Source of the DNA: Incurvaria masculella
Taxonomy: Eukaryota; Arthropoda; Insecta; Lepidoptera; Incurvariidae
DNA length: 64,000 bases
NCBI GenBank assembly: GCA_946894095.1
Contig: OX335651.1
Span: 4,734,501 to 4,798,500, forward strand
Reading direction: 5' to 3'
Shown here piece by piece: positions 27,720-59,909 of this stretch. Position numbers and translations under genes: made by a program. A model generated the notes under the pieces. It saw only the letters and a program-made list of their open reading frames with translations, did no database searches and was not told the origin of the DNA. Position 1 is the stretch's first letter; each line of letters starts with the position of its first letter.

Positions 27720-27728
27720 AAATAATAC

Positions 27729-29540
27729 GGCTCCGTCAAGTTAGAAACCCCCTAACGAAAAATCGTATTTTTCTAATGCAGTCGTTTAGTACTTATTTTG
27801 TACAGATTTGTACACCTCATTGTTTATTTTGTACGGTTAAGATTGAGTAAATACAGGCCAAGCAACGGGGGTTTCTAACTTGACGCTCAGACCGCCAACA
27901 TTTCATTTTACCTACTTTTAATATCCAATCGTTTTGTACTCATTTTGTACTGATTAGTACACCGAATGAATTATTTAGTACAGCTTTGACTTCGAAATAA
28001 TAGACAAATGAATGGGGGTTTCTAACTTGACGTTTTTCCATTTAAACATTTATAACTTTTGAAAATGATATTCTAAAAGGCCATGCTTTGAAACGTTTAG
28101 TACACCAAAAAGTATGTTTAGTACGCATTCGTATCCATAACTACAGGACGTTGAATATTGCCAACCGATAGATCAGTTTGCTAAGGTAAATTGGGGGTGT
28201 CTAGTACATACCTAGCTCTACTTACAATACAAAAATGTATTATGACGAACATATATATATTTTCAAAAGTACAGCAAAAAAGTGATTTATTACACCTTTA
28301 GATAAGCTAGAAAAAAATTACAAAGCCCAGCGATGAATATGAAGCACTCGCCCCAATTGCCGTGTGGTGTCTAGTACACATTACTCTCTAGTTGGAAATA
28401 AAAAATGGATTCTGATCACAATATATATCATCTCAAAAGTACAGCAAAAAAAAAATTTATTACACCTTTAGATAAGCTAGAAAAAAATACAAAGCCCAGC
28501 GATGATTATTACGCACTCGCACCAATTGCCTTGTGGTGACTAGTACACACCACTCTCTAGTTGGAAATAAAAAATGGATTCTGATCACCATATATATCAT
28601 CTCAAAAGTACAGCAAAAAAATTACTTATTACAACTTTAGATAAGCTAGAAAAAAAATACAAAGCCCAGCGATTATTATGACGGACTCGCCCCGATTGCC
28701 TTGTCGTGAGTAGTACACACCACTCTCTAGTTGGAAATAAAAAATGGATTCTGATCACCATATATATCATCTCAAAAGTACAACAAAAAAGGAATTTATT
28801 ACACGTTTATAGAAGCTCGAAAAAATAAACCAAATCTTGTAACGATTATATAAGCGCTCGCGCCAATTGGCGTATGGTGTCTAGCACATACTACTCTCTA
28901 GTTGAAAAAAAAAATGATTATTATCAACAAACAGATTGTTTGGTAATTTGATACATTCCTTATTCACAAGGAGGGTCATAAATGACAGTTTATATAAAAA
29001 AGCATAACAAAAAAAAGTATTACACAAGCCATACTAATTATGAAAATAACTTCATTATTTTTTAAGTTTCCAGAAAAGATACAAATGTTGTCCAATTCAC
29101 ACAAGTTCCATACAAGCAAAAAATAATTTATTACAACTTTAGATAAGCTAGAAAAAAAATACAAAGCCCAGCGATGATTATTACGCACTCGCACCAATTG
29201 CCTTGTGTTGACTAGTACACACCACTCTCTAGTTGGAAATAAAAAATGGATTCTGATCACCATATATATCATCTCAAAAGTACAGCAAAAATTATGTATT
29301 ACACCTTTAGATAAGCTAGAAAAAAAAAACAAAGCGCAGCGATGATTATTACGCACTAGCCCCAGTTGCCTTTTGGTGTCTAGTACACACCACTCTCTAG
29401 TTGGAAATAAAAAGTGGATTCTGATCAACATATATATCATCTCAAAAATACAGTAAAAAAGTGATTGATTACACCTTTAGATTACCTAGAAAAAAATACA
29501 ATATCCTGTGATGATTATTAACAGATTCGTTACCCTATCA
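27729..29540. repeat. Left inverted-repeat arm of foldback element
   Basis: From the outside inward: terminal CGTCAAGTTAGAAACCCCC (27734-27752); two inverted copies of it, GGGGGTTTCTAACTTGACG, at 27867-27885 and 28014-28032; about ten GTAC-centred words (TTTTGTACA, TTAGTACACC and similar) at 27790-28130; then six about 170-bp repeats, with an inserted 130-bp module at about 28979-29113. The reverse complement matches the right arm. Confidence 0.88.
28210..29520. repeat. About 170-bp tandem repeats, left arm (six units)
   Basis: ACTCTCTAGTTGGAAATAAA (or close variants) recurs near 28383, 28552, 28722, 28893, 29222 and 29392, spaced about 170 bp except across the inserted module. Each unit also has TTTAGATAAGCTAG or a variant, CAAAGCCCAGCGAT and a TAGTACA word. 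The 154-codon minus frame at 28976-29440 is an artefact of reading across these units. Confidence 0.9.
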
Positions 29541-30147
29541 ATTCTCCATACTACGGGCGATAATTGTTTTTACATGCTCTTAATGTTTTAATAGGTTTTT
29601 TAAATTTTAGATTCTAAAATTTAAAAAATCTAAGTCTGTAAGTTTTCAATTTTTTAACATATCTATTAGTTTAGAAAATATTGGCTAATAAAGATTGGAA
29701 AAAAGTTGTCATTTTTTACGTTCATTTTCAATTTTTTTTACTGGAAAATACCAATATTTACATAATAATCAAAACATACGGACATAAAATTAAGCTTTTT
29801 CAAGTAATCAATAATTTAATTCAATTCTGACATAGATTAGGGGTAGGGAAACGTTAGAGCCTGGAAGACTCTACTACCAGAAGTTGAATAAATAAATGAA
29901 ATGAAATGAAGACTATTTCGCTATTTTAATGGCAGTCGCCGTGCAACATTGTGCCTTGGGCAATGGACAAAGAATGCATTTCTTAAACATTCCAAATCTT
30001 AGATTTCTTGTGACTTACCACTCTATAGTTGCAAATACAAAACAATGCTCTGAAAAGAAGAAAATAAACCCGAACTAAAAAATAGAACCATTTGATGACA
30101 TCGGAAATTATTATTGTTGCAATGGTATTGAATTGGAAAGAGCATTA
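29541..30147. other. Foldback interior, AT-rich; palindrome and LINE tail
   Basis: Contains an almost perfect palindrome at 29596-29628 (16-bp arms around a single T) and a GTTGAATAAATAAATGAAA-type tail with ATGAA repeats at about 29880-29910, typical of a LINE 3' end. No gene was recognised. Confidence 0.5.
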
Positions 30148-30430
30148 AGAATAAACACGGACGATTTTTCATTGCCGCTTCGGCCATCTTTTCATCCAAT
30201 GCGATGGTACCAGCCCGGGCGGGCTTACACCCTACTTACTAGTGGGAAGGAGACCTACAGCTTTACATGGATTCCGAACCATGGAGCAGCTCGCATTGGT
30301 GACGAAATGCACATATCCAACTCAGAAAGAGAAATAAAGTGGTGCACGAACTGGTTAGGATTTGAACTCAGACCTCTGGGATGCTAGACAAGTCCGCGCG
30401 CTACCTCGTATCCTAGAGCCGCTCGCTCCA
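30148..30430 (-). mobile_element. tRNA-type SINE, tail truncated
   Basis: Minus strand runs from a tRNA-like head (decayed A-box near 30410, B-box region near 30365) through GCTGCTCCATGGTTCGG to CATCGCATTGGATGAAAAGA and GAAGCGGCAATGAAAAAT. It lies inside the foldback interior. Confidence 0.85.
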
Positions 30431-30522
30431 CCACGCGAATATTACTGGTATAATTACTGGTCAGATTTTAATAAGGTTTTTACTACTCAAGCTACCACGT
30501 CGATAACTCCATTAGCTTAAAA

Positions 30523-30985
30523 CCAGTCCAGTACGAGTCGGACTCGCACACGAAGGTTTCCATATAATCGTACAAGATTAACACAAAAAAAAAGGCCAAG
30601 TGCGAGTCGGACTCGCATACGAAGGGTTACGTACCATCTTACAAGATTTACCCCAAAAATAACACGTTATTTGTATGGGGCCTCCCTTTCAATTTTTATT
30701 ATTTTATAATTTTACCTATTTGTTGTTATAGCGGCAAAATAAATACATAATCTGTGAAAATTTAAGTTTCCTACCTGTTACGGTTCATGAGATACAGCCC
30801 TGTGACAGACGGACGGACGGACGGACGGACGGACGGACGGACGGACGGACAGCGGAGGCTTAGTAATAGGGTTCCGTTTTCACCCTTTGGGTACGGAACC
30901 CTAAAAATCACGTTTTTTGGGGCCTCCTTTATTTTTATTTTTTTTTAAATTTTGCTGTTATAGCGGCAAAATAAATACACATCCA
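30523..30985 (-). repeat. Cluster of (TCCG)n-bearing repeats
   Basis: A 5' fragment (30523-30593), then a full minus copy (30590-30907) with a long GGAC array (about 30808-30850), then a partial third copy (30908-30985) that starts internally with GGGGCCTCC and GTTATAGCGGCAAAATAAAT. All share one orientation, as in the tandem pair at 11119-11747. Confidence 0.9.
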
Positions 30986-31047
30986 GCGTGGGTGGGAAGA
31001 ATTAGTGATGTGGGGAAGGAGGCACTCCACCTTGCACTCGCACATAT

Positions 31048-31365
31048 TTTTTTATGAAACCTGACTTGGACAGTTAATACCACACACTACCGTTATGATA
31101 TTAGCCTGATACACAATATTCTCGAATAAATTAAGTGCCATACCAGGTCCTTTCCTATATGAGCACGAAAAGATTGAACTGGACGGAACCATAGTTTCAT
31201 CCAATGCGGTAGTACCAACGCGGGCGGGCTTAATCCTGCCAACTAGTAGGGGAAGGGGACCTACACTTTAACATGTTTTCTAAACAAGGGAAAACAGCTC
31301 GAGACCAGAACCCAGACCTCACCCATAAAAGGGAAGTCCTCTAGCCCCTAGACCACGAGCTGACA
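31048..31365 (-). mobile_element. tRNA-type SINE, diverged
   Basis: Minus strand has a decayed head, GGTCCCCTTCCCCTACTAG, GGTACTACCGCATTGGATGA and the GGCACTTAATTTATTCGAGA tail block, ending at a T-run (A-tail). Confidence 0.82.
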
Positions 31366-32007
31366 AGTAGATACAGTAGATATTAGATGTACTTATTTTC
31401 AATTTGAAGGTTTAGTGCTTCATTGCGCCTAATTGACATACGAGCTATCCAACGAATCATATAAATTTAAAATGATAATATAATGACTGTTTTATAATCG
31501 GTACTTACTTACGCTCCACGTTTCAAAGGATTTGTTTGTCAACTAATCATAATCAGTACGACCGCCCAATAATGCGTTCGTCTGCACTCCATACAGCGAG
31601 TGTTCGCGCTGCCTTGATAGCGTGCTCTTTGGATTGATCGGACAACGTGTCGGCCAACAAACTGTCGGAAGAGTTCACGGCGCACAGGCCCACCAATACA
31701 TGCACACAGCTGCACACTCCGTAGATATTGGCACTAATACGAATACCATGCACATGTCCAAACTTAGTATGAGATTAGCACCGGCTAACCATACTAATAC
31801 CGGTTTAGTCCGGAGGCTTAAAGTTAGTCCGCCCACTCTGAATACAAAAGCAGGTATTGTTCATTTTGATATATTTTCAAAATGACCAATTTGAGAAAAG
31901 TTTCATCTAACATGTTTTGGTTTCTTGAATTCGATTCAGTATTACTTCTACTTCCATCCATATATCGCTGGTCGTTCTCCACTTAAATTCTCAAACTTAC
32001 AACAAAT
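31366..32007. other. Foldback interior, unrecognised
   Basis: Includes a moderately GC-rich patch at 31560-31760 with opposed short frames but no known domain. Confidence 0.45.
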
Positions 32008-32293
32008 AAAACCGGCCAAGTGCGAGTCGGGCTCGCACACGAAGGGTTCCGTACCATAAACACCAAAAAGTCACGTTTATTGTATGCCCCCCCCCCCCAC
32101 CCCTTTCATATTTTTTTATTTTACCTATTTTTTGTTATAGCGGCAAACATACAAAGTCTGTGAAAATTTCAGCTGCCTACCTTGTACCCTTCATGAGATA
32201 CAGCCCTGTGACAGTCGGACGGACGGACGGCCGGACAGTAGAGGCTTAGTAATAGGGTTCTGTTTTCACCCTTTGGGTACGGAACCCTAAAAA
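32008..32293 (-). repeat. (TCCG)n-bearing repeat, full copy
   Basis: AAACCGGCCAAGTGCGAGTC to CACCCTTTGGGTACGGAACC. Its internal GGGGCCCC block has become a 12-C run (32087-32098). Confidence 0.92.
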
Positions 32294-32326
32294 CCAACGC
32301 ATGTTTTAAATGCATATCTAAGAAAT

Positions 32327-32617
32327 AAAAACCGGCCAAGTGCGAGTCGGACTCGCACACGAACGGTTCCGTTCCATCGTACAATATTTAACACAAAAAA
32401 AATCTTTTTTTTTTGTATGGGACACACCTTTATTTTTTATATTTTTTTTATGTTACCAATTTGTTGTTATAGCGGCAAAATAAATATACACTCTCTGAAA
32501 ATTTCAGCTGCCTACCTATTACCGTTCATGAAATACAGCCCCGTGACAGACGGACGGACAGTGGAGGCTTAGTAATAGGGTCCCGTTTTCACCCTTTGGG
32601 TACGGAACCCTAAAAAC
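32327..32617 (-). repeat. (TCCG)n-bearing repeat, full copy
   Basis: Second same-orientation copy only 33 bp after the previous one, complete at both ends, with a very short GGAC run. Confidence 0.92.
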
Positions 32618-33159
32618 GACCGGCAGGTTTACTTTCCATAGGGGGCTTAATAAACGACTATTTCCATGCGAGCTATCTACATATTGCGTTTCTAATTTAA
32701 TTATAAAATTGACATGATTAATTCAATAAAACAAAATCGATAAGACAAGTATGTAAATAAGTTAACATAAGGACGAATTGAAAACATCCTCTTTTTGGAA
32801 GTCGGTTGGAAAACTATTCCCGTAAAAACAGTAATTATTGTTGAAGTGTCAACGGATGTGGGCAATCCCGCCATGTTACGGTGCGAAAGAAATATGTCAT
32901 CGATGGAGATAAGTGGTTGTTACGACCAAATGTTTATCAATTGCTGATTTCCAATGTAAAAACTCTAATCTTGTTCCTCTGGAATACTAATGAAAATAAG
33001 ATTGTTACAGAATGTCGGTTATTTATTAATCAGAAATTGTATTTAATTTGAAGACTGTTTAGGTTTCGTAACACATTAATATGAAAATTGATCCTACTGA
33101 TTTGACTCGTGTGTAGGTATTTTTATCCGCCTGCTGTTACATGGCCATAACTTTATTTT
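32618..33159. other. Foldback interior, AT-rich, unrecognised
   Basis: No supported feature. Confidence 0.5.
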
Positions 33160-33352
33160 ATTATGTGGACATGCATGGCTACTATCTCACTCACCGTCAT
33201 GAGATCAGCTCAACACACCGCATTTCTAAAGGAATAAGTTGCCATGCCAGGACCTTACCTTTAGGAGCACGGCTACATTTAACTGGATACGGAAAACACT
33301 GATTCGTTTTCATTGCCGCTTCGCCCGTCTCTTCATCTAATACGATGGTACA
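33160..33352 (-). mobile_element. SINE 3' half
   Basis: Minus strand: GGTACC-like TACCATCGTATTAGATGAAG, GAAGCGGCAATGAAAACG, TAGCCGTGCTCCTAAAGG and the GGCATGGCAACTTATTCC tail block. Confidence 0.75.
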
Positions 33353-33789
33353 ATAGTAGGGGTTAAACGAGTTCGTTGTTTCGAGTTAATTTGGTAAGAA
33401 ATTAACTAAACACATGTGGCTTAGATATCTGTTAATTATCCATATACCATTTTGGCAAAGTTTTGTATTTTTGAGCTTATCTAAAGTTACAAAATAAATA
33501 CAATACTAATAAATAACTTTTCTGTTCATTCCTTCTAAGGCGTCATTCTAGAGCAAATTTGCAACAAATTAGGCCCAGTAAAATTAAGGTCTGATATCAA
33601 TAGTTTTTGAGTTATTTAAGTTTTTTTTTTTAAATATTCCGTCTTATTATGAAAAAGTGATGATAATACACTCTAGGCATTTTAACAGCAACTTTGTAAT
33701 AGCTGATGAATGAGGAACTTCTTCAAAAAAAGAAATTGATTCAAAATATACATAATTTCAGAAATAAAGGATCACGAACAATAGTTTAT
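33353..33789. other. Foldback interior next to right arm, unrecognised
   Basis: AT-rich. A GAGCTTATCTAAAGTTAC at about 33473 resembles part of the 170-bp unit, so a decayed unit may extend here. Confidence 0.4.
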
Positions 33790-36110
33790 GAAAAAAAAAA
33801 TGTATTCAAATCAGAGAGAATTACTAAAAAAAAGTATGACACGTGGCATACAAACTATGGATATAACTTTATTATTTCATAAGCTTCCAGAAAAGGTACA
33901 AATGTTGTCCACTTTCACACAAGTTCTATATTTTTTTTTATTTAGTTGGGTTTGCGCTGTCGATTTTAATTTAAGAAAAAGGTCCTCATTAAGATGTATA
34001 AACTGGTCAACAATGAAAAAACATTTGCATTAGTTGCATTTGAAACCAAACAAAATAATATGGAACTTGTGTAAAGTGGACAACATTTGTATCTTTTCTG
34101 GAAACTTAAAAAATAATGAAGTTATTTTCATAATTAGTATGGCTTGTGTAATACTTTTTTTGTTATGCTTTTTATATAAACTGTCATTTATGACCCTCCC
34201 TGTGAATAAGGAATGTATCAAATTACCAAACAATCTGTTTGTTGATAATAATCATTTTTTTTCCAACTAGAGAGTAGTATGTACTAGACTCCATACGCCA
34301 ATTGGCGCGAGCGCTTTTATAATCGTTACAAGATTTGGTTGATTTTTTCTAGCTTCTATAAACGTGTAATAAATTTCTTTTTTGTTGTACTTTTGAGATG
34401 ATATATATGGTGATCAGAATCCATTTTTTATTTCCAACTAGAGAGTGGTGTGTACTACTCACGACAAGGCAATCGGGGCGAGTCCGTCATAATAATCGCT
34501 CGGCTTTGTATTTTTTTTCTAGCTTATCTAAAGTTGTAATAAATAATTTTTTTGCTGTACTTTTGAGATGATATATATGGTGATCAGAATCCATTTTTTA
34601 TTTCCAACTAGAGAGTGGTGTGTACTAGTCAACACAAGGCAATTGGTGCGAGTGCGTAATAATCATCGCTGGGCTTTGTATTTTTTTTCTAGCTTATCTA
34701 AAGTTGTAATAAATTATTTTTTGCTTGTATGGAACTTGTGTGAATTGGACAACATTTGTATCTTTTCTGGAAACTTAAAAAATAATGAAGTTATTTTCAT
34801 AATTAGTATGGCTTGTGTAATACTTTTTTTTGTTATGCTTTTTTATATAAACTGTCATTTATGACCCTCCTTGTGAATAAGGAATGTATCAAATTACCAA
34901 ACAATCTGTTTGTTGATAATAATCATTTTTTTTTTCAACTAGAGAGTAGTATGTGCTAGACACCATACGCCAATTGGCGCGAGCGCTTATATAATCGTTA
35001 CAAGATTTGGTTTATTTTTTCGAGCTTCTATAAACGTGTAATAAATTCCTTTTTTGTTGTACTTTTGAGATGATATATATGGTGATCAGAATCCATTTTT
35101 TATTTCCAACTAGAGAGTGGTGTGTACTACTCACGACAAGGCAATCGGGGCGAGTCCGTCATAATAATCGCTGGGCTTTGTATTTTTTTTCTAGCTTATC
35201 TAAAGTTGTAATAAGTAATTTTTTTGCTGTACTTTTGAGATGATATATATGGTGATCAGAATCCATTTTTTATTTCCAACTAGAGAGTGGTGTGTACTAG
35301 TCACCACAAGGCAATTGGTGCGAGTGCGTAATAATCATCGCTGGGCTTTGTATTTTTTTCTAGCTTATCTAAAGGTGTAATAAATTTTTTTTTTGCTGTA
35401 CTTTTGAGATGATATATATTGTGATCAGAATCCATTTTTTATTTCCAACTAGAGAGTAATGTGTACTAGACACCACACGGCAATTGGGGCGAGTGCTTCA
35501 TATTCATCGCTGGGCTTTGTAATTTTTTTCTAGCTTATCTAAAGGTGTAATAAATCACTTTTTTGCTGTACTTTTGAAAATATATATATGTTCGTCATAA
35601 TACATTTTTGTATTGTAAGTAGAGCTAGGTATGTACTAGACACCCCCAATTTACCTTAGTAAACTGATCTATCGGTTGGCAATATTCAACGTCCTGTAGT
35701 TATGGATACGAATGCGTACTAAACGTACTTTTTGGTGTACTAAACGTTTAAAGCATGGCCTTTTAGAATATCATTTTCAAAAGTTATAAATGTTTAAATG
35801 GAAAAACGTCAAGTTAGAAACCCCCATTCATTTGTCTATTATTTCGAAGTCAAAGCCGTACTAAATAATTCATTCGGTGTACTAATCAGTACAAAATGAG
35901 TACAAAACGATTGGATATTAAAAGTAGGTAAAATGAAATGTTGGCGGTCTGAGCGTCAAGTTAGAAACCCCCGTTGCTTGGCCTGTATTTACTCAATCTT
36001 AACCGTACAAAATAAACAATGAGGTGTACAAATCTGTACAAAATAAGTACTAAGCGACTGCATTAGAAAAATACGATTTTTCGTTAGGGGGTTTCTAACT
36101 TGACGGAGCC
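33790..36110. repeat. Right inverted-repeat arm of foldback element
   Basis: Mirror of the left arm, but longer. Seven about 170-bp units (CTAGAGAGT landmarks near 34268, 34438, 34608, 34938, 35110, 35280 and 35449) are arranged with two copies of the 130-bp module (about 34061-34200 and 34735-34866). This gives an about 671-bp higher-order duplication. A third, inverted module lies at about 33820-33925. The outer motifs are at 35807-35825, 35954-35972 and 36087-36105. Confidence 0.88.
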
Positions 36111-36128
36111 AAATAATACTGGCAATAA

Positions 36129-56190: not shown

Positions 56191-56966
56191 ACTTCGGAGC
56201 TACTTCTGACGGACACAAGCACTATACCAAGCAAAATGATAAGCTTTCACAATTTTGCACATTGTTTCCAGATATCCAAACTGTGCTGAAATGTTTCTGG
56301 AAAGTCTGTATGGATAATATACTTGTTTTGCTTTTATTATCACTCAAACTAATATTTTACTCAAGTACTTATATAGTCTGTGCTACTCAGTCTTTGTCAC
56401 AAATTGGTTCTTGTAACCACAGAGTGTATTCAATAGTTTGTGCTCAATAGTGTTTTTATTTTCTCAAGCGGAGAGAGAAAAGGCTCTCGCCGTTTATGCT
56501 TGTTCGGGCAACCACTTTACGGTCAATTAATTATTTTAGGCCATATACTTTTATTCTTTTTTTTTCCTTAAACTTATCAACCATTGTTTTGTATACTTTT
56601 GTGTATTTTAGGTCTCAGAAGTGGTGTTTTACTGGGCATACTATTTTCCTGTGTCTGTATAATTTAATTAGAGTAAATTTTTCTTTTTTTTTCCATTGCT
56701 TGTGAGATAATGGTTTTGTTTAGTCTATTGATTATTTCTGCAAGGTGTTTTACTATATGTTTTAAGTCTCATATTTGTTATCCTTTTCTTGTGCCTTTGC
56801 AGTTTGTTTATGTTTCCTGTATTATGTGTTTTTTTTTTTCTTACTTTCCACAATGCTGGCGGGGGATGAGGTACTGCCTGCGGTTCGGCAGCTATATATA
56901 TTTTTTTTATTGATTTAAATATATATATATATACATTTTTAATTATATTATAGTAAATATTTATTT
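56191..56966 (+). other. Inter-ORF spacer of the LINE, T-rich
   Basis: 776 bp between ORF1 stop and ORF2 start, with long T-tracts and short hydrophobic frames that I regard as chance. It ends in an (AT)n run at about 56914-56935. Unusually long for a bicistronic LINE, where ORFs usually overlap or nearly abut. Confidence 0.6.
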
Positions 56967-59909
56967 ATGTCCACAATATCTGACAATTCAGATAATTATT
57001 TTTCTATTACCTCTTCTGACGAGTTTTTCAGTGACAATACTTCTGACAGTGAATGTGTTCTTCCTATAGATGAACAACTTGACTTCACATTTTCCAAATA
57101 TCCCAAAAACTTCAACTTTGTGCATATCAATGCTCAAAGCATACCCTCCCACTACCCCGACCTTCTCAGGACATTTCCAAGTAAGCACATTCATGCGTTA
57201 TTTGTTTCGGAAACTTTTCTCAAGCCTACATTACCATCCACTTCTTTTTCACTTCCCGGGTTCCACCTGGTCCGTAATGACAGAACGGGGAAAGGTTGCG
57301 GTGGTGTTGCTATCTACCTCCGAAGCAATATTCCTTTTACGATAGTTGCCCAGTCTCCTACTCAGTATTCGGAATCACCCGAATACCTTTTCCTGGAAAT
57401 CATCGTCAATCATACGAAAATCCTCATTGGTGTTTATTACAGCCCTAATCTAAATATCAATTATTTTTCATCATTTGAGTCTTTTCTTGAAGAACGCTGC
57501 CCTCAGTACAACCATACTATTATCATGGGAGATTTCAACACCTGCTTGATCAAAGATGATCACCGCGCTAGAAAACTTAAGTCCCTCGTGTCTTCAGTCA
57601 ATATGAACATTCTTCCCCTGGATGCGACACATCATTTTCCTAATTGTGAACCTTCTTTGCTTGATTTGATTATTACTTCTTCACCTAACCATGTAAGTGA
57701 ACATGGTCAGCTCCCAGCGCCTGGTTTCTCCCATCATGACCTAATCTATCTATCCTATAAGGTCCGTCCTCCTAAAAACAGACGGAAGGTTCTCTTGCAA
57801 CGTAACTTCAAAGACATCAATCTCGAACGCTTAAGGGAGGACGCGCGTGGCTTGGATTGGTCTGTTATACTCAATTCCTCTTCCACGGATGAGATGGTCG
57901 AGGACTTCACCTCCAAACTCACTGCACTCTTCGATGTTCACGCACCTCTTCGTCCCACACGAGTAAAACATTTTCCAGCTCCGTGGTTGACGGACAATAT
58001 TCGGATAATGATGGTGAAAAGGGACAAAGCCAAAATTAAACTAAGACATACATCCACGGACGAAAATCGCACCAAGTACAAGCTGCTCAGGAATCGGTGT
58101 AACAGGATGTGTAGAGATGCCCAAAGACACCACATTCACAATACCCTCGAAAATTGCTCTCCCGTGAATGCTTGGAAGTTTCTTAAAACTCTTGGAGTCG
58201 GTAAGAAATCATCTTGTAGTAAAAATAACATCGATATCAACTCCCTTAATAGACATTTTTCCTCTCCTCCTGTCACCATCGATCAAGTGGTAAAGTCTCA
58301 AACTCTTTTTCAGCTTTCAGCTTTACCGACTCCGGAGCACAATTCACTCACTTTTCGCCCAGTCACTGACCGTGAAGTTAAGATGATCCTGAATTCCATT
58401 TCTACAAAAGCTGTTGGTGCTGACTGCATTAGCCTTGACATGCTGTTACCACTGCTGGATGAACTGTTACCAATAATAACTTATATTTTAAACCATTCCC
58501 TCTCCAGTGGATCTTTTCCAAGTACCTGGAAAAGGGCTTACGTTATTCCTCTCCCAAAAATTTCAAATCCCTCCTCTTTCAGCCAATATCGCCCTATTTC
58601 AATTTTACCGGTTTTGTCAAAATTCTTGGAACGCATTGTTCACCAGCAGTTGGCCGACTTTCTTACAGATAACCACATACTGAACCTAATGCAGTCAGGT
58701 TTCCGACCTGGTCACAGCACTGTCACTGCCCTTGTCAAAGTCACTGAAGATGTCCGTACAAATATGGAAAATAAGAATGTTACAGTTTTAACGTTGCTGG
58801 ACTTCAGCAATGCTTTCAATACAGTTGACTTTGACATTATGCTAGGTATTCTAAGGACACTTAACTTATCTCCGGTAGTGCTTGACTGGTTTGATTCATA
58901 CCTTCGTGGTCGTCATCAGTGTATCAGGATTGACAATGAATATTCTGACTGGGCTGATTTGACTGCTGGCGTTCCACAAGGTGGCGTGTTATCTCCTTTG
59001 CTGTTTTCCATCTTTATAAATCTGATCACGAATCTGCTTACTTCTCTCTACCACCTTTACGCCGATGACTTACAGTTGTATTTGCATTGCTCCTTAGATA
59101 ACCTGGCAGATACCGTATCTGAAATGAACGTGAACCTGGAACATATACTTACTTGGACAAAATCATTTGGCCTGCTGGTAAATCCTACCAAATCACAAGC
59201 CATAATAATAGGCAGCCCTAGACTTCTGTCGAAGGTTGATTACAGCACATTGCCAGCAGTGATCTACAATGGAGTTGTCATACCATACTCCAAAACAGTC
59301 AAGAATTTAGGAATTTTCATTGACGAAACTTTATCGTGGGTGCCCCAGGTAAACGAGGTCAGCAGAAAAATCTTTGCCGCCGCCCACTCCTTAAAGCGCT
59401 TGCAGAATTTCCTCCCAGTCCGAACCAAAATTACTTTGGTGCAAACTCTCCTCTTTCCGATTTTAGACTACGCAGATGTTTGCTACTTGGATCTAACTGA
59501 AGTTCTCCTAGACAAGCTGGATCGTTTGCAGAATCTCTGCATTCGCTTGATATATGGTCTGCGTAAATATGACCATGTATCGCAGTACCGTCGTGAGCTT
59601 AAATGGCTACCCATCCGTTTCCGAAGGAACTGTCATTTACTAATTCTTCTTTACGGAATTCTAAATAACCCTAACTCTCCTGAATATCTTCGTTCCCGGT
59701 TTATGAACCTCTCTTCACACGGTCTCCCTTTGCGATCTAGCAATGACAGTATCCTTGCGATTCCTCGCCATACGACGTGTTTTTTCTCTAACTCCTTTAC
59801 TGTTCATGCCGCACGTCTGTGGAACTCGTTGCCCATCACAGTCCGCTCCTGTCAAACTATCAGCTCTTTCAAACTTAAAGTCAAGGAGTTTTACTTAAAT
59901 GAAATGTAA
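56967..59909 (+). CDS. LINE ORF2: AP-like endonuclease and reverse transcriptase
   Basis: 980 residues, uninterrupted. It nicks chromosomal DNA and primes reverse transcription of its own RNA at the nick. N-terminal endonuclease (about residues 50-262): HINAQSI at 53-59 (metal-binding Asn), FVSET at 79-83 (catalytic Glu), IMGDFNT at 186-192, SLLDLII at 230-236 and FSHHDLI at 254-260 (His-Asp). A linker follows. Reverse transcriptase (about 460-770): WKRAYVIPLPK at 521-531, YRPISILP at 541-548, QSGFRPGHST at 576-585, LLDFSNAFNTVD at 610-621, AGVPQGGVLSPLL at 667-679 and LYADD at 697-701 (catalytic Asp pair). The C-terminus has RLWNSLP followed by SFKLKVKEF, as in CR1/Jockey-group proteins. All catalytic residues I can place are present. 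The start is the first ATG after an (AT)n run; an upstream start is unlikely because of stops. Confidence 0.96.
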   Translation: MSTISDNSDNYFSITSSDEFFSDNTSDSECVLPIDEQLDFTFSKYPKNFNFVHINAQSIPSHYPDLLRTFPSKHIHALFVSETFLKPTLPSTSFSLPGFHLVRNDRTGKGCGGVAIYLRSNIPFTIVAQSPTQYSESPEYLFLEIIVNHTKILIGVYYSPNLNINYFSSFESFLEERCPQYNHTIIMGDFNTCLIKDDHRARKLKSLVSSVNMNILPLDATHHFPNCEPSLLDLIITSSPNHVSEHGQLPAPGFSHHDLIYLSYKVRPPKNRRKVLLQRNFKDINLERLREDARGLDWSVILNSSSTDEMVEDFTSKLTALFDVHAPLRPTRVKHFPAPWLTDNIRIMMVKRDKAKIKLRHTSTDENRTKYKLLRNRCNRMCRDAQRHHIHNTLENCSPVNAWKFLKTLGVGKKSSCSKNNIDINSLNRHFSSPPVTIDQVVKSQTLFQLSALPTPEHNSLTFRPVTDREVKMILNSISTKAVGADCISLDMLLPLLDELLPIITYILNHSLSSGSFPSTWKRAYVIPLPKISNPSSFSQYRPISILPVLSKFLERIVHQQLADFLTDNHILNLMQSGFRPGHSTVTALVKVTEDVRTNMENKNVTVLTLLDFSNAFNTVDFDIMLGILRTLNLSPVVLDWFDSYLRGRHQCIRIDNEYSDWADLTAGVPQGGVLSPLLFSIFINLITNLLTSLYHLYADDLQLYLHCSLDNLADTVSEMNVNLEHILTWTKSFGLLVNPTKSQAIIIGSPRLLSKVDYSTLPAVIYNGVVIPYSKTVKNLGIFIDETLSWVPQVNEVSRKIFAAAHSLKRLQNFLPVRTKITLVQTLLFPILDYADVCYLDLTEVLLDKLDRLQNLCIRLIYGLRKYDHVSQYRRELKWLPIRFRRNCHLLILLYGILNNPNSPEYLRSRFMNLSSHGLPLRSSNDSILAIPRHTTCFFSNSFTVHAARLWNSLPITVRSCQTISSFKLKVKEFYLNEM

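What the first reader, a model, noticed from the sequence alone, without database searches (positions are those of the whole stretch)
27720..36119. Foldback-type element of 8.4 kb with a 9-bp target duplication and old host repeats inside
Seen: AAATAATAC directly outside both ends; exact inverted termini; only about two differences over the outermost 330 bp of the arms; arms of tandem repeats. Known: Drosophila FB and Rehavkus-type Mutator-like elements combine long tandem-repeat inverted arms with 9-bp duplications. Inferred: a lepidopteran relative that moved as one unit and carried about 4 kb of SINE-filled host DNA. Young arms around an older interior point to capture or arm homogenisation.
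Basis: partly seen in the sequence, partly recalled or inferred. Interest (0 to 1): 0.88.

Follow-up and report, generated by a model that had tools for sequence, protein, structure and literature searches.

The report
Foldback transposon family carrying host repeats
This 8.4-kb stretch is one of more than 30 closely similar copies of a mobile DNA element in this (likely moth) genome; the copies share a package of older repeats between two mirror-image arms, the large copies whose borders we read are flanked by a 9-base copy of the landing site, and they were likely moved by a Mutator-type enzyme made elsewhere in the genome.

Summary
The element is 27729-36110 (8,382 bp) inside a 9-bp duplication AAATAATAC, with inverted arms of a ~460-bp end domain plus ~170-bp tandem units. 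The host genome was searchable. The 24-base end occurs 147 times; of 100 listed ends, 35 pairs form and 33 enclose the same interior. All 17 large elements that I delimited have exactly 9 bp duplicated, each different, and four of the 17 joined-flank sites match related empty sites. The 'older interior' is not local host DNA: it belongs to the family, 1.3-2.1% divergent between copies against 1.1% for the outer arm. About 40% of it is old host repeats, aboard before the copies spread. Arm homogenisation is shown for this copy only: 1,111 bp are identical in both arms, they share nine private variants absent from 16 other arms, and the right arm has gained left-arm sequence. This element's interior has no recognisable transposase. 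Eight uninterrupted Mutator-superfamily frames (809-853 aa) exist elsewhere in the genome but are not linked to these ends; Merlin-type transposases exist too. Closest in design: Tetris, Rehavkus-1_TC, Drosophila FB. A well-resolved new member of a known kind.

The parts
27720..27728 (.). left 9-bp target-site duplication AAATAATAC
   Evidence: sequence
36111..36119 (.). right 9-bp target-site duplication AAATAATAC
   Evidence: sequence
27729..36110 (.). whole element, 8,382 bp
   Evidence: exact inverted ends inside the duplication; other copies
27729..28195 (+). left outer (end) domain with three copies of the 18-bp end motif (27735-27752 +, 27867-27884 -, 28014-28031 -)
35644..36110 (-). 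right outer (end) domain with the same three motif copies (35808-35825 +, 35955-35972 +, 36087-36104 -)
28226..29520 (+). left array of ~170-bp tandem units
   Evidence: unit matrix
34255..35644 (-). right array of ~170-bp tandem units
   Evidence: unit matrix
28181..29291 (+). left side of the 1,111-bp tract identical in both arms (copied arm to arm)
34549..35659 (-). right side of the identical tract; its inner part is left-arm-type sequence
34059..34729 (-). right-arm segment around and after the switch back to right-arm type; the arm is ~670 bp longer than in the copies compared
33826..33930 (+). inverted copy (about 84% to the left-arm equivalent) of the inner arm segment, facing 34059-34178
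   Evidence: D13, I23
29521..33825 (.). interior shared by the family; no Pfam domain in six frames of 29400-34100
30153..30404 (.). SINE-like host repeat in the interior
30518..30981 (.). host repeat with GACG microsatellite, with partial further copies
31041..31275 (.). SINE-like host repeat
31490..31860 (.). another dispersed host repeat; five hits away from listed ends at 76-94%
31994..32295 (.). host repeat with GACG microsatellite
32319..32619 (.). host repeat with GACG microsatellite
33166..33351 (.). SINE-like host repeat

Best explanation
This is an 8,382-bp foldback-type DNA transposon without a recognisable transposase gene, one of at least 35 copies in its genome, that was likely cut and pasted as one unit by a Mutator-superfamily transposase supplied in trans. 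Shown: the inverted ends, the 9-bp target duplications of 17 of 17 delimited large elements, four related empty sites, the shared interior with its host repeats, and the arm-to-arm copy event in this copy. Inferred: the ~70-bp outer ends are what the transposase needs, because a 120-bp element with only that part has its own 9-bp duplication; the tandem units are extra binding sites or passengers; an ancestor acquired the repeat-filled interior before the recent spread; and the arm copy ran from left to right by repair of a break in one arm using the other as template, rejoining out of register in the tandem array.
For: Ends: 147 matches with up to 2 mismatches, control 0; of 35 pairs among the 100 listed ends, 33 enclose the interior. 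Duplications: 17 of 17 exact at 9 bp. Empty sites: 4 of 17 joined flanks matched something in the sequences in hand across the joint - the inner nested element against arm units of other copies (up to 99%) and three others at 82-88%. Interior: 35 of 40 scored hits lie between two listed ends and 5 within 20 kb of one; divergence 1.3-2.1% interior, 1.1% outer arm. Mini-element of 120 bp with TAGGTAATC on both sides. Arm copying: 0 differences between this copy's arms at 461-1384 against 15, 17, 27 and 35 in four control elements; nine private states in both arms, 0 in each of the four controls; the right arm at 1290-1640 aligns over its whole length with left arms but only in part with right arms, and from 1568 it matches right arms best, at register 897. 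Mutator: eight uninterrupted PF20700 frames of 809-853 aa.
Against: No transposase gene is linked to these ends. The nearest PF20700 match is 165 kb from a listed end (100 of 147 ends listed). Merlin-type transposases (PF12762, 23 matches) are also present, one of them 44 kb from the family end at C3:10586946, a copy that I could not read; from recall that superfamily makes 8-9-bp duplications. Two of the three small elements have 8 of 9 duplicated bases. No empty site was obtained for this very insertion.
Confidence: 0.78

Rival explanations
1. The element belongs to another cut-and-paste superfamily with a similar duplication length, such as Merlin (DDE_Tnp_IS1595), and is moved by one of its transposases.
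For: 23 PF12762 matches, some with frames of 316-353 aa; one match lies 44 kb from a family end on C3; no transposase is physically linked to these ends.
Against: All 17 delimited duplications are exactly 9 bp; from recall Merlin mostly makes 8 bp. Tandem-repeat arms with duplications of about 9 bp are the published pattern of Rehavkus, Tetris and FB.
Confidence: 0.14
2. Two short elements inserted separately on either side of old host DNA, or a local inverted duplication, made the structure.
For: Short elements with the same ends exist (120, 344 and 927 bp).
Against: One 9-bp duplication frames the whole, and the same interior lies between 33 listed pairs of ends genome-wide.
Confidence: 0.01
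3. Arms are homogenised at every transposition, for example through a hairpin intermediate, and the identical tract is just a sign of a recent jump.
For: This copy's arms are identical for 1,111 bp; two other elements have 0 differences in the outer 470 bp.
Against: Within-element outer-arm differences (mean 4.6 of 470, 17 elements) are about as many as between elements (5.6); four control elements differ by 15-35 at 461-1384, and their arms share no private variants. Only five elements, this one included, could be compared over that stretch.
Confidence: 0.07

Closest known systems
Tetris of Drosophila virilis (PMC4079207, passages seen)
   Same: Non-autonomous; arms with an end domain plus ~220-bp tandem repeats; middle of variable composition without coding capacity; 8-10-bp duplications; shares its ends with a short element (DAIBAM); transposase not found.
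   Different: Here ~170-bp units (sequences not compared), the same interior between 33 listed pairs of ends, 17 of 17 exact 9-bp duplications, and a documented arm-to-arm copy. Tetris had three structurally complete copies.
Rehavkus-1_TC of Tribolium (described in PMC10218199, passages seen; Repbase entry not seen)
   Same: 9.5 kb, tandem units of 164 bp (mostly five and eight monomers) in the inverted termini, several copies; the Rehavkus group has 9-bp duplications (PMC6446971, passages seen).
   Different: Rehavkus carries a transposase with a PHD finger; none was found here. Sequence relation untested.
Drosophila FB4 / Ssk-FB4 (PMC8277862, passages seen)
   Same: Foldback element with 9-10-bp duplications, non-autonomous with unknown transposase, multicopy spread of a captured cargo.
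   Different: Cargo here is in good part host repeats, with no gene recognised; different host order (inferred).
Lepidopteran MULEs (PMC13359780, passages seen)
   Same: 2.7-9.2 kb, TIRs 24-1193 bp, G/C-rich first bases.
   Different: Those encode a transposase; the arms of this copy are ~1.57 kb of near-identity and made of tandem units.

Membership tests
Foldback (structural class) | long inverted arms with tandem repeats around a middle domain | tested here: met
Foldback (structural class) | arms variable in unit number between and within copies | tested here: met
   1-7 unit anchors per arm in 17 elements
Mutator superfamily | 8-11-bp, typically 9-bp, target duplication | tested here: met
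   17 of 17 exact 9 bp
Mutator superfamily | transposase of the superfamily encoded by, or shown to move, the element | tested here: inconclusive
   no Pfam domain in this element's interior; PF20700 and PF10551 loci in the genome but not near the 100 listed ends
Rehavkus | 9-bp duplication and tandem-unit (minisatellite) termini | tested here: met
   definition
Rehavkus | DDE transposase with PHD finger | tested here: not met
   no domain found in this element; autonomous partner unknown
Pack-MULE / Pack-TIR | host DNA between the ends, amplified with distinct target duplications | tested here: met
   host repeats in the interior, distinct duplications
Pack-MULE / Pack-TIR | captured gene fragment with identifiable parental gene | tested here: inconclusive
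   segment 31490-31860 has outside relatives but behaves as a dispersed repeat (793 candidates); no gene found
Galileo (P superfamily) | P-type transposase; 7-bp duplication (recalled) | tested here: not met
   duplications are 9 bp
Merlin | 8-9-bp duplication (recalled) and IS1595-type transposase on the element | tested here: inconclusive
   length compatible; 23 matches in the genome, nearest 44 kb from a listed end

The most novel reading that the evidence does not exclude
An animal Pack-MULE-like burst: a foldback element turned a cluster of old host repeats into a constant cargo and spread it to dozens of sites by an unlinked Mutator transposase, while breaks in its tandem arms are repaired from the opposite arm out of register, so that the arms grow and stay matched by copying each other.
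Probability: 0.4. Interest if true: 0.62.

Novelty: new member of a known kind. Interest (0 to 1): 0.5.

Why it matters
Foldback elements have been described from flies, nematodes and plants among others, and the enzyme that moves them is often unknown (FB4 and Tetris). This family is young, numerous and cleanly delimited in a genome of 31 contigs that also holds uninterrupted Mutator transposases, so the enzyme question becomes testable. It also gives a clear example of arm-to-arm copying that added tandem units, and shows a set of host repeats being spread as fixed cargo.

Tried and rejected
Large copies as autonomous elements: the extra DNA in the 12-, 18- and 19.5-kb copies reads as later insertions (two LTR retroelements with identical LTR-like repeats of 258 and 1,385 bp, a mariner-type and a LINE-type element; named by eye from their open frames, no domain search), not as a transposase of the family. 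A ~1-kb extra piece in L019 was not identified; the 11.2- and 12.3-kb copies on C6 and C15 were not fetched. MULE loci (PF10551, 9 matches): frames of at most 260 aa, no family terminus in the fetched ~3.2-kb loci, and over 2 Mb from the listed ends of their contigs or on contigs without any. Merlin loci: 23 matches, nearest 44 kb from a listed end. Orphan ends as the autonomous element: the 14 probed (12, 2) are older members, a ~0.9-kb variant in one repeated context, a 120-bp mini-element or truncated ends; none shows a recognisable transposase in its first ~1.3-1.5 kb (by eye, frames of 90 aa or more in 12 of the 14). L024, another orphan, has arms only. Thirteen listed orphan ends were not probed, ten of them without a scored interior hit beside them (C3:10586946 among these). 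Viral-contig scan for the exact end: none. An empty site for this very insertion was asked for three times and never answered. General homogenisation of arms rejected. Rows dropped: L024 from the duplication counts, because its left end is truncated. Of 30 arms given to (15 of 18 elements), 12 were dropped because their best single match did not span the 1,384-bp reference (mostly other unit numbers), leaving this copy's two and 16 others. In one search L024 and the outer nested element were left out, as were matches under 92% identity.
Full report
OBSERVATION. The element occupies 27729-36110 (8,382 bp) between two copies of AAATAATAC. The longest exact match between the two flanks is nine bases. 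The termini GGCTCCGTCAAGTTAGAAACCCCC are exact inverted copies. There are five differences between the arms (four substitutions, one indel) at arm positions 57, 254, 362, 387 and 452, so two in the outer 330 bp, and then none for 1,111 bp. Each arm has an outer domain of about 460 bp with three copies of an 18-bp end motif, one in and two against the direction of the arm, followed by an array of ~170-bp units.

GENOME-WIDE FAMILY. The window lies in a 552-Mb, 31-contig genome. The left 401 bp give 40 scored hits of 164 candidates at 98-100%. The 24-base end with up to two mismatches occurs 147 times, against 0 for the reversed control pattern; 100 places were listed. From these 100 I paired each left end with the nearest right end within 20 kb: 35 pairs, of which 33 (6.2-19.5 kb) enclose a scored interior hit and two are short elements of 344 and 927 bp. 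In the nested pair on C8 the script gave both left ends the same right end; the true outer right end is known from L021. Two more elements with the interior, whole or in part, were delimited from fetched DNA (L019 and the internally deleted L028), which makes at least 35. No exact match to the end was found in the viral contig collection.

MOVED AS A UNIT. I delimited 17 large elements (3.6-19.5 kb): this one and 16 fetched ones, chosen from the best-scoring ends. All 17 have an exact duplication of nine bases, no longer and no shorter, and all 17 are different. One further fetched copy (L024) has a truncated left end and was dropped. Of three short elements, the 120-bp one has a 9 of 9 duplication and the 344- and 927-bp ones have 8 of 9. 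One element sits inside the arm unit of another, and that site is found uninterrupted at up to 99% in the arms of other copies. The joined flanks of three more of the 17 match uninterrupted relatives at 82-88% among the sequences in hand; the other 13, this window's among them, matched nothing across the joint there. The 120-bp element keeps only the outer ~70 bp, which suggests that this part is enough for movement.

INTERIOR. The segment 32640-33160 gives 40 scored hits of 56 candidates (96-99% for nearly all the full-length ones, down to 92% for some partial ones and 94% for the inner nested copy); 35 lie between two listed ends and 5 within 20 kb of one. Mean pairwise divergence among the copies compared is 1.1% for the left outer arm (16 copies) and 1.3-2.1% for five interior blocks (15-16 copies); matches under 92% identity were left out. 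So the interior spread with the arms. What is old is its content: 1,740 of 4,310 bp match repeats elsewhere in the window, three related repeats in it are only 77-83% alike, and 31490-31860 has five hits far from any listed end at 76-94%. Two hits at 93% on C3, 5-7 kb from family ends, suggest that the interior was already aboard in an older generation (inferred). No Pfam family was found in six frames of this copy's interior. Extra DNA in the 12-, 18- and 19.5-kb copies reads as later insertions of other elements (by eye).

ARM COPYING. At arm positions 461-1384 the two arms of this copy have no difference, yet differ at 15-47 positions from each of 16 other arms. In the four other elements whose arms could both be aligned, left and right differ by 15, 17, 27 and 35. 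Nine states are found in both arms of this copy and in none of the 16 others; each of the four controls has 0 such states. The right arm at 1290-1640 aligns over its full length with left arms (up to 98.6%) but only from inside the stretch with right arms. Its part 1399-1567 is 98.8-100% to most left arms and 98.2% to the best right arms, so that part alone decides little. From 1568 on it matches right arms best (98.3%) and at register ~897. The right arm is thereby about 670 bp longer than in the copies compared. I read this as a left-to-right copy of at least 1.1 kb with rejoining out of register. The few columns that separate left from right arms in other copies do not settle the direction (of three substitution columns this copy has the right-arm majority at two and the left-arm majority at one). 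Repair synthesis across a break, unequal exchange and gene conversion would all give it; the choice among them is inference. It is not a general property: within-element outer-arm differences (mean 4.6 of 470 bp, 17 elements) are about those between elements (5.6).

WHAT MOVES IT. Mutator-type PF10551 matches (9) have frames of at most 260 aa. PF20700 'Mutator' gives 19 matches, eight with uninterrupted frames of 809-853 aa, three of them (852 aa) with the same score. PF12762 (Merlin) gives 23 matches, the nearest 44 kb from a listed end. Nine-base duplications and tandem-repeat arms favour Mutator; this stays an inference. On checking, the Merlin distance led me to raise that rival slightly and lower the main confidence slightly.

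KNOWN RELATIVES. Passages seen by term search: Tetris (PMC4079207), Rehavkus in PMC6446971 and PMC10218199, arthropod MULEs (PMC13359780), Tm1 (PMC3169594), Muta1 (PMC5225508), Pack-TIRs including Ssk-FB4 (PMC8277862), monarch elements (PMC8848866, only a reference matched). [quoted passage not shown] None of the papers listed by my searches shows a lepidopteran foldback family in its title or the start of its abstract; one search listed 15 of 32, and the library holds open-licence papers only. By design the present family is closest to Tetris and Rehavkus-1_TC. It is a new member of a known kind.

Noticed in passing
30518-30981, 31994-32295, 32319-32619 and many places outside the element: A ~300-bp repeat with a GACG/GTCC microsatellite and matching ends (AGGGTTCCGTACC ... 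GGTACGGAACCCT) is spread through the window; it recalls the mini-me elements of flies (recalled, not tested).
   Followed up: partly
L054, L056, L057, L059, L061, L063, L064, L065: A ~0.9-kb variant of the family sits after nearly the same flank (caccgcgg.cgc; L057 differs) in these eight places, so it probably rides inside another mobile repeat.
   Followed up: partly
L020+L021 (C8:10687047-10703551): One family member is inserted in the arm of another, each with its own 9-bp duplication.
   Followed up: yes
L014+L015, L016+L017: Apparent LTR retroelements with 100% identical terminal repeats (258 and 1,385 bp) sit inside two family copies, so they came in after those copies.
   Followed up: partly
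C20:1715592-1738855 (L034-L037): Four MULE-domain (PF10551) frames spaced ~7-8 kb apart and 97-100% alike in the aligned parts of the fetched stretches: apparently a tandem array.
   Followed up: no
C9:4793910, C19:15386280, C22:6717259 and five others: Uninterrupted PF20700 Mutator transposase frames of 809-853 aa, three with the same score: likely recently active elements.
   Followed up: no
window 56943-59909: A 988-aa open frame that looks like endonuclease plus reverse transcriptase, apparently a non-LTR retroelement (by eye).
   Followed up: no
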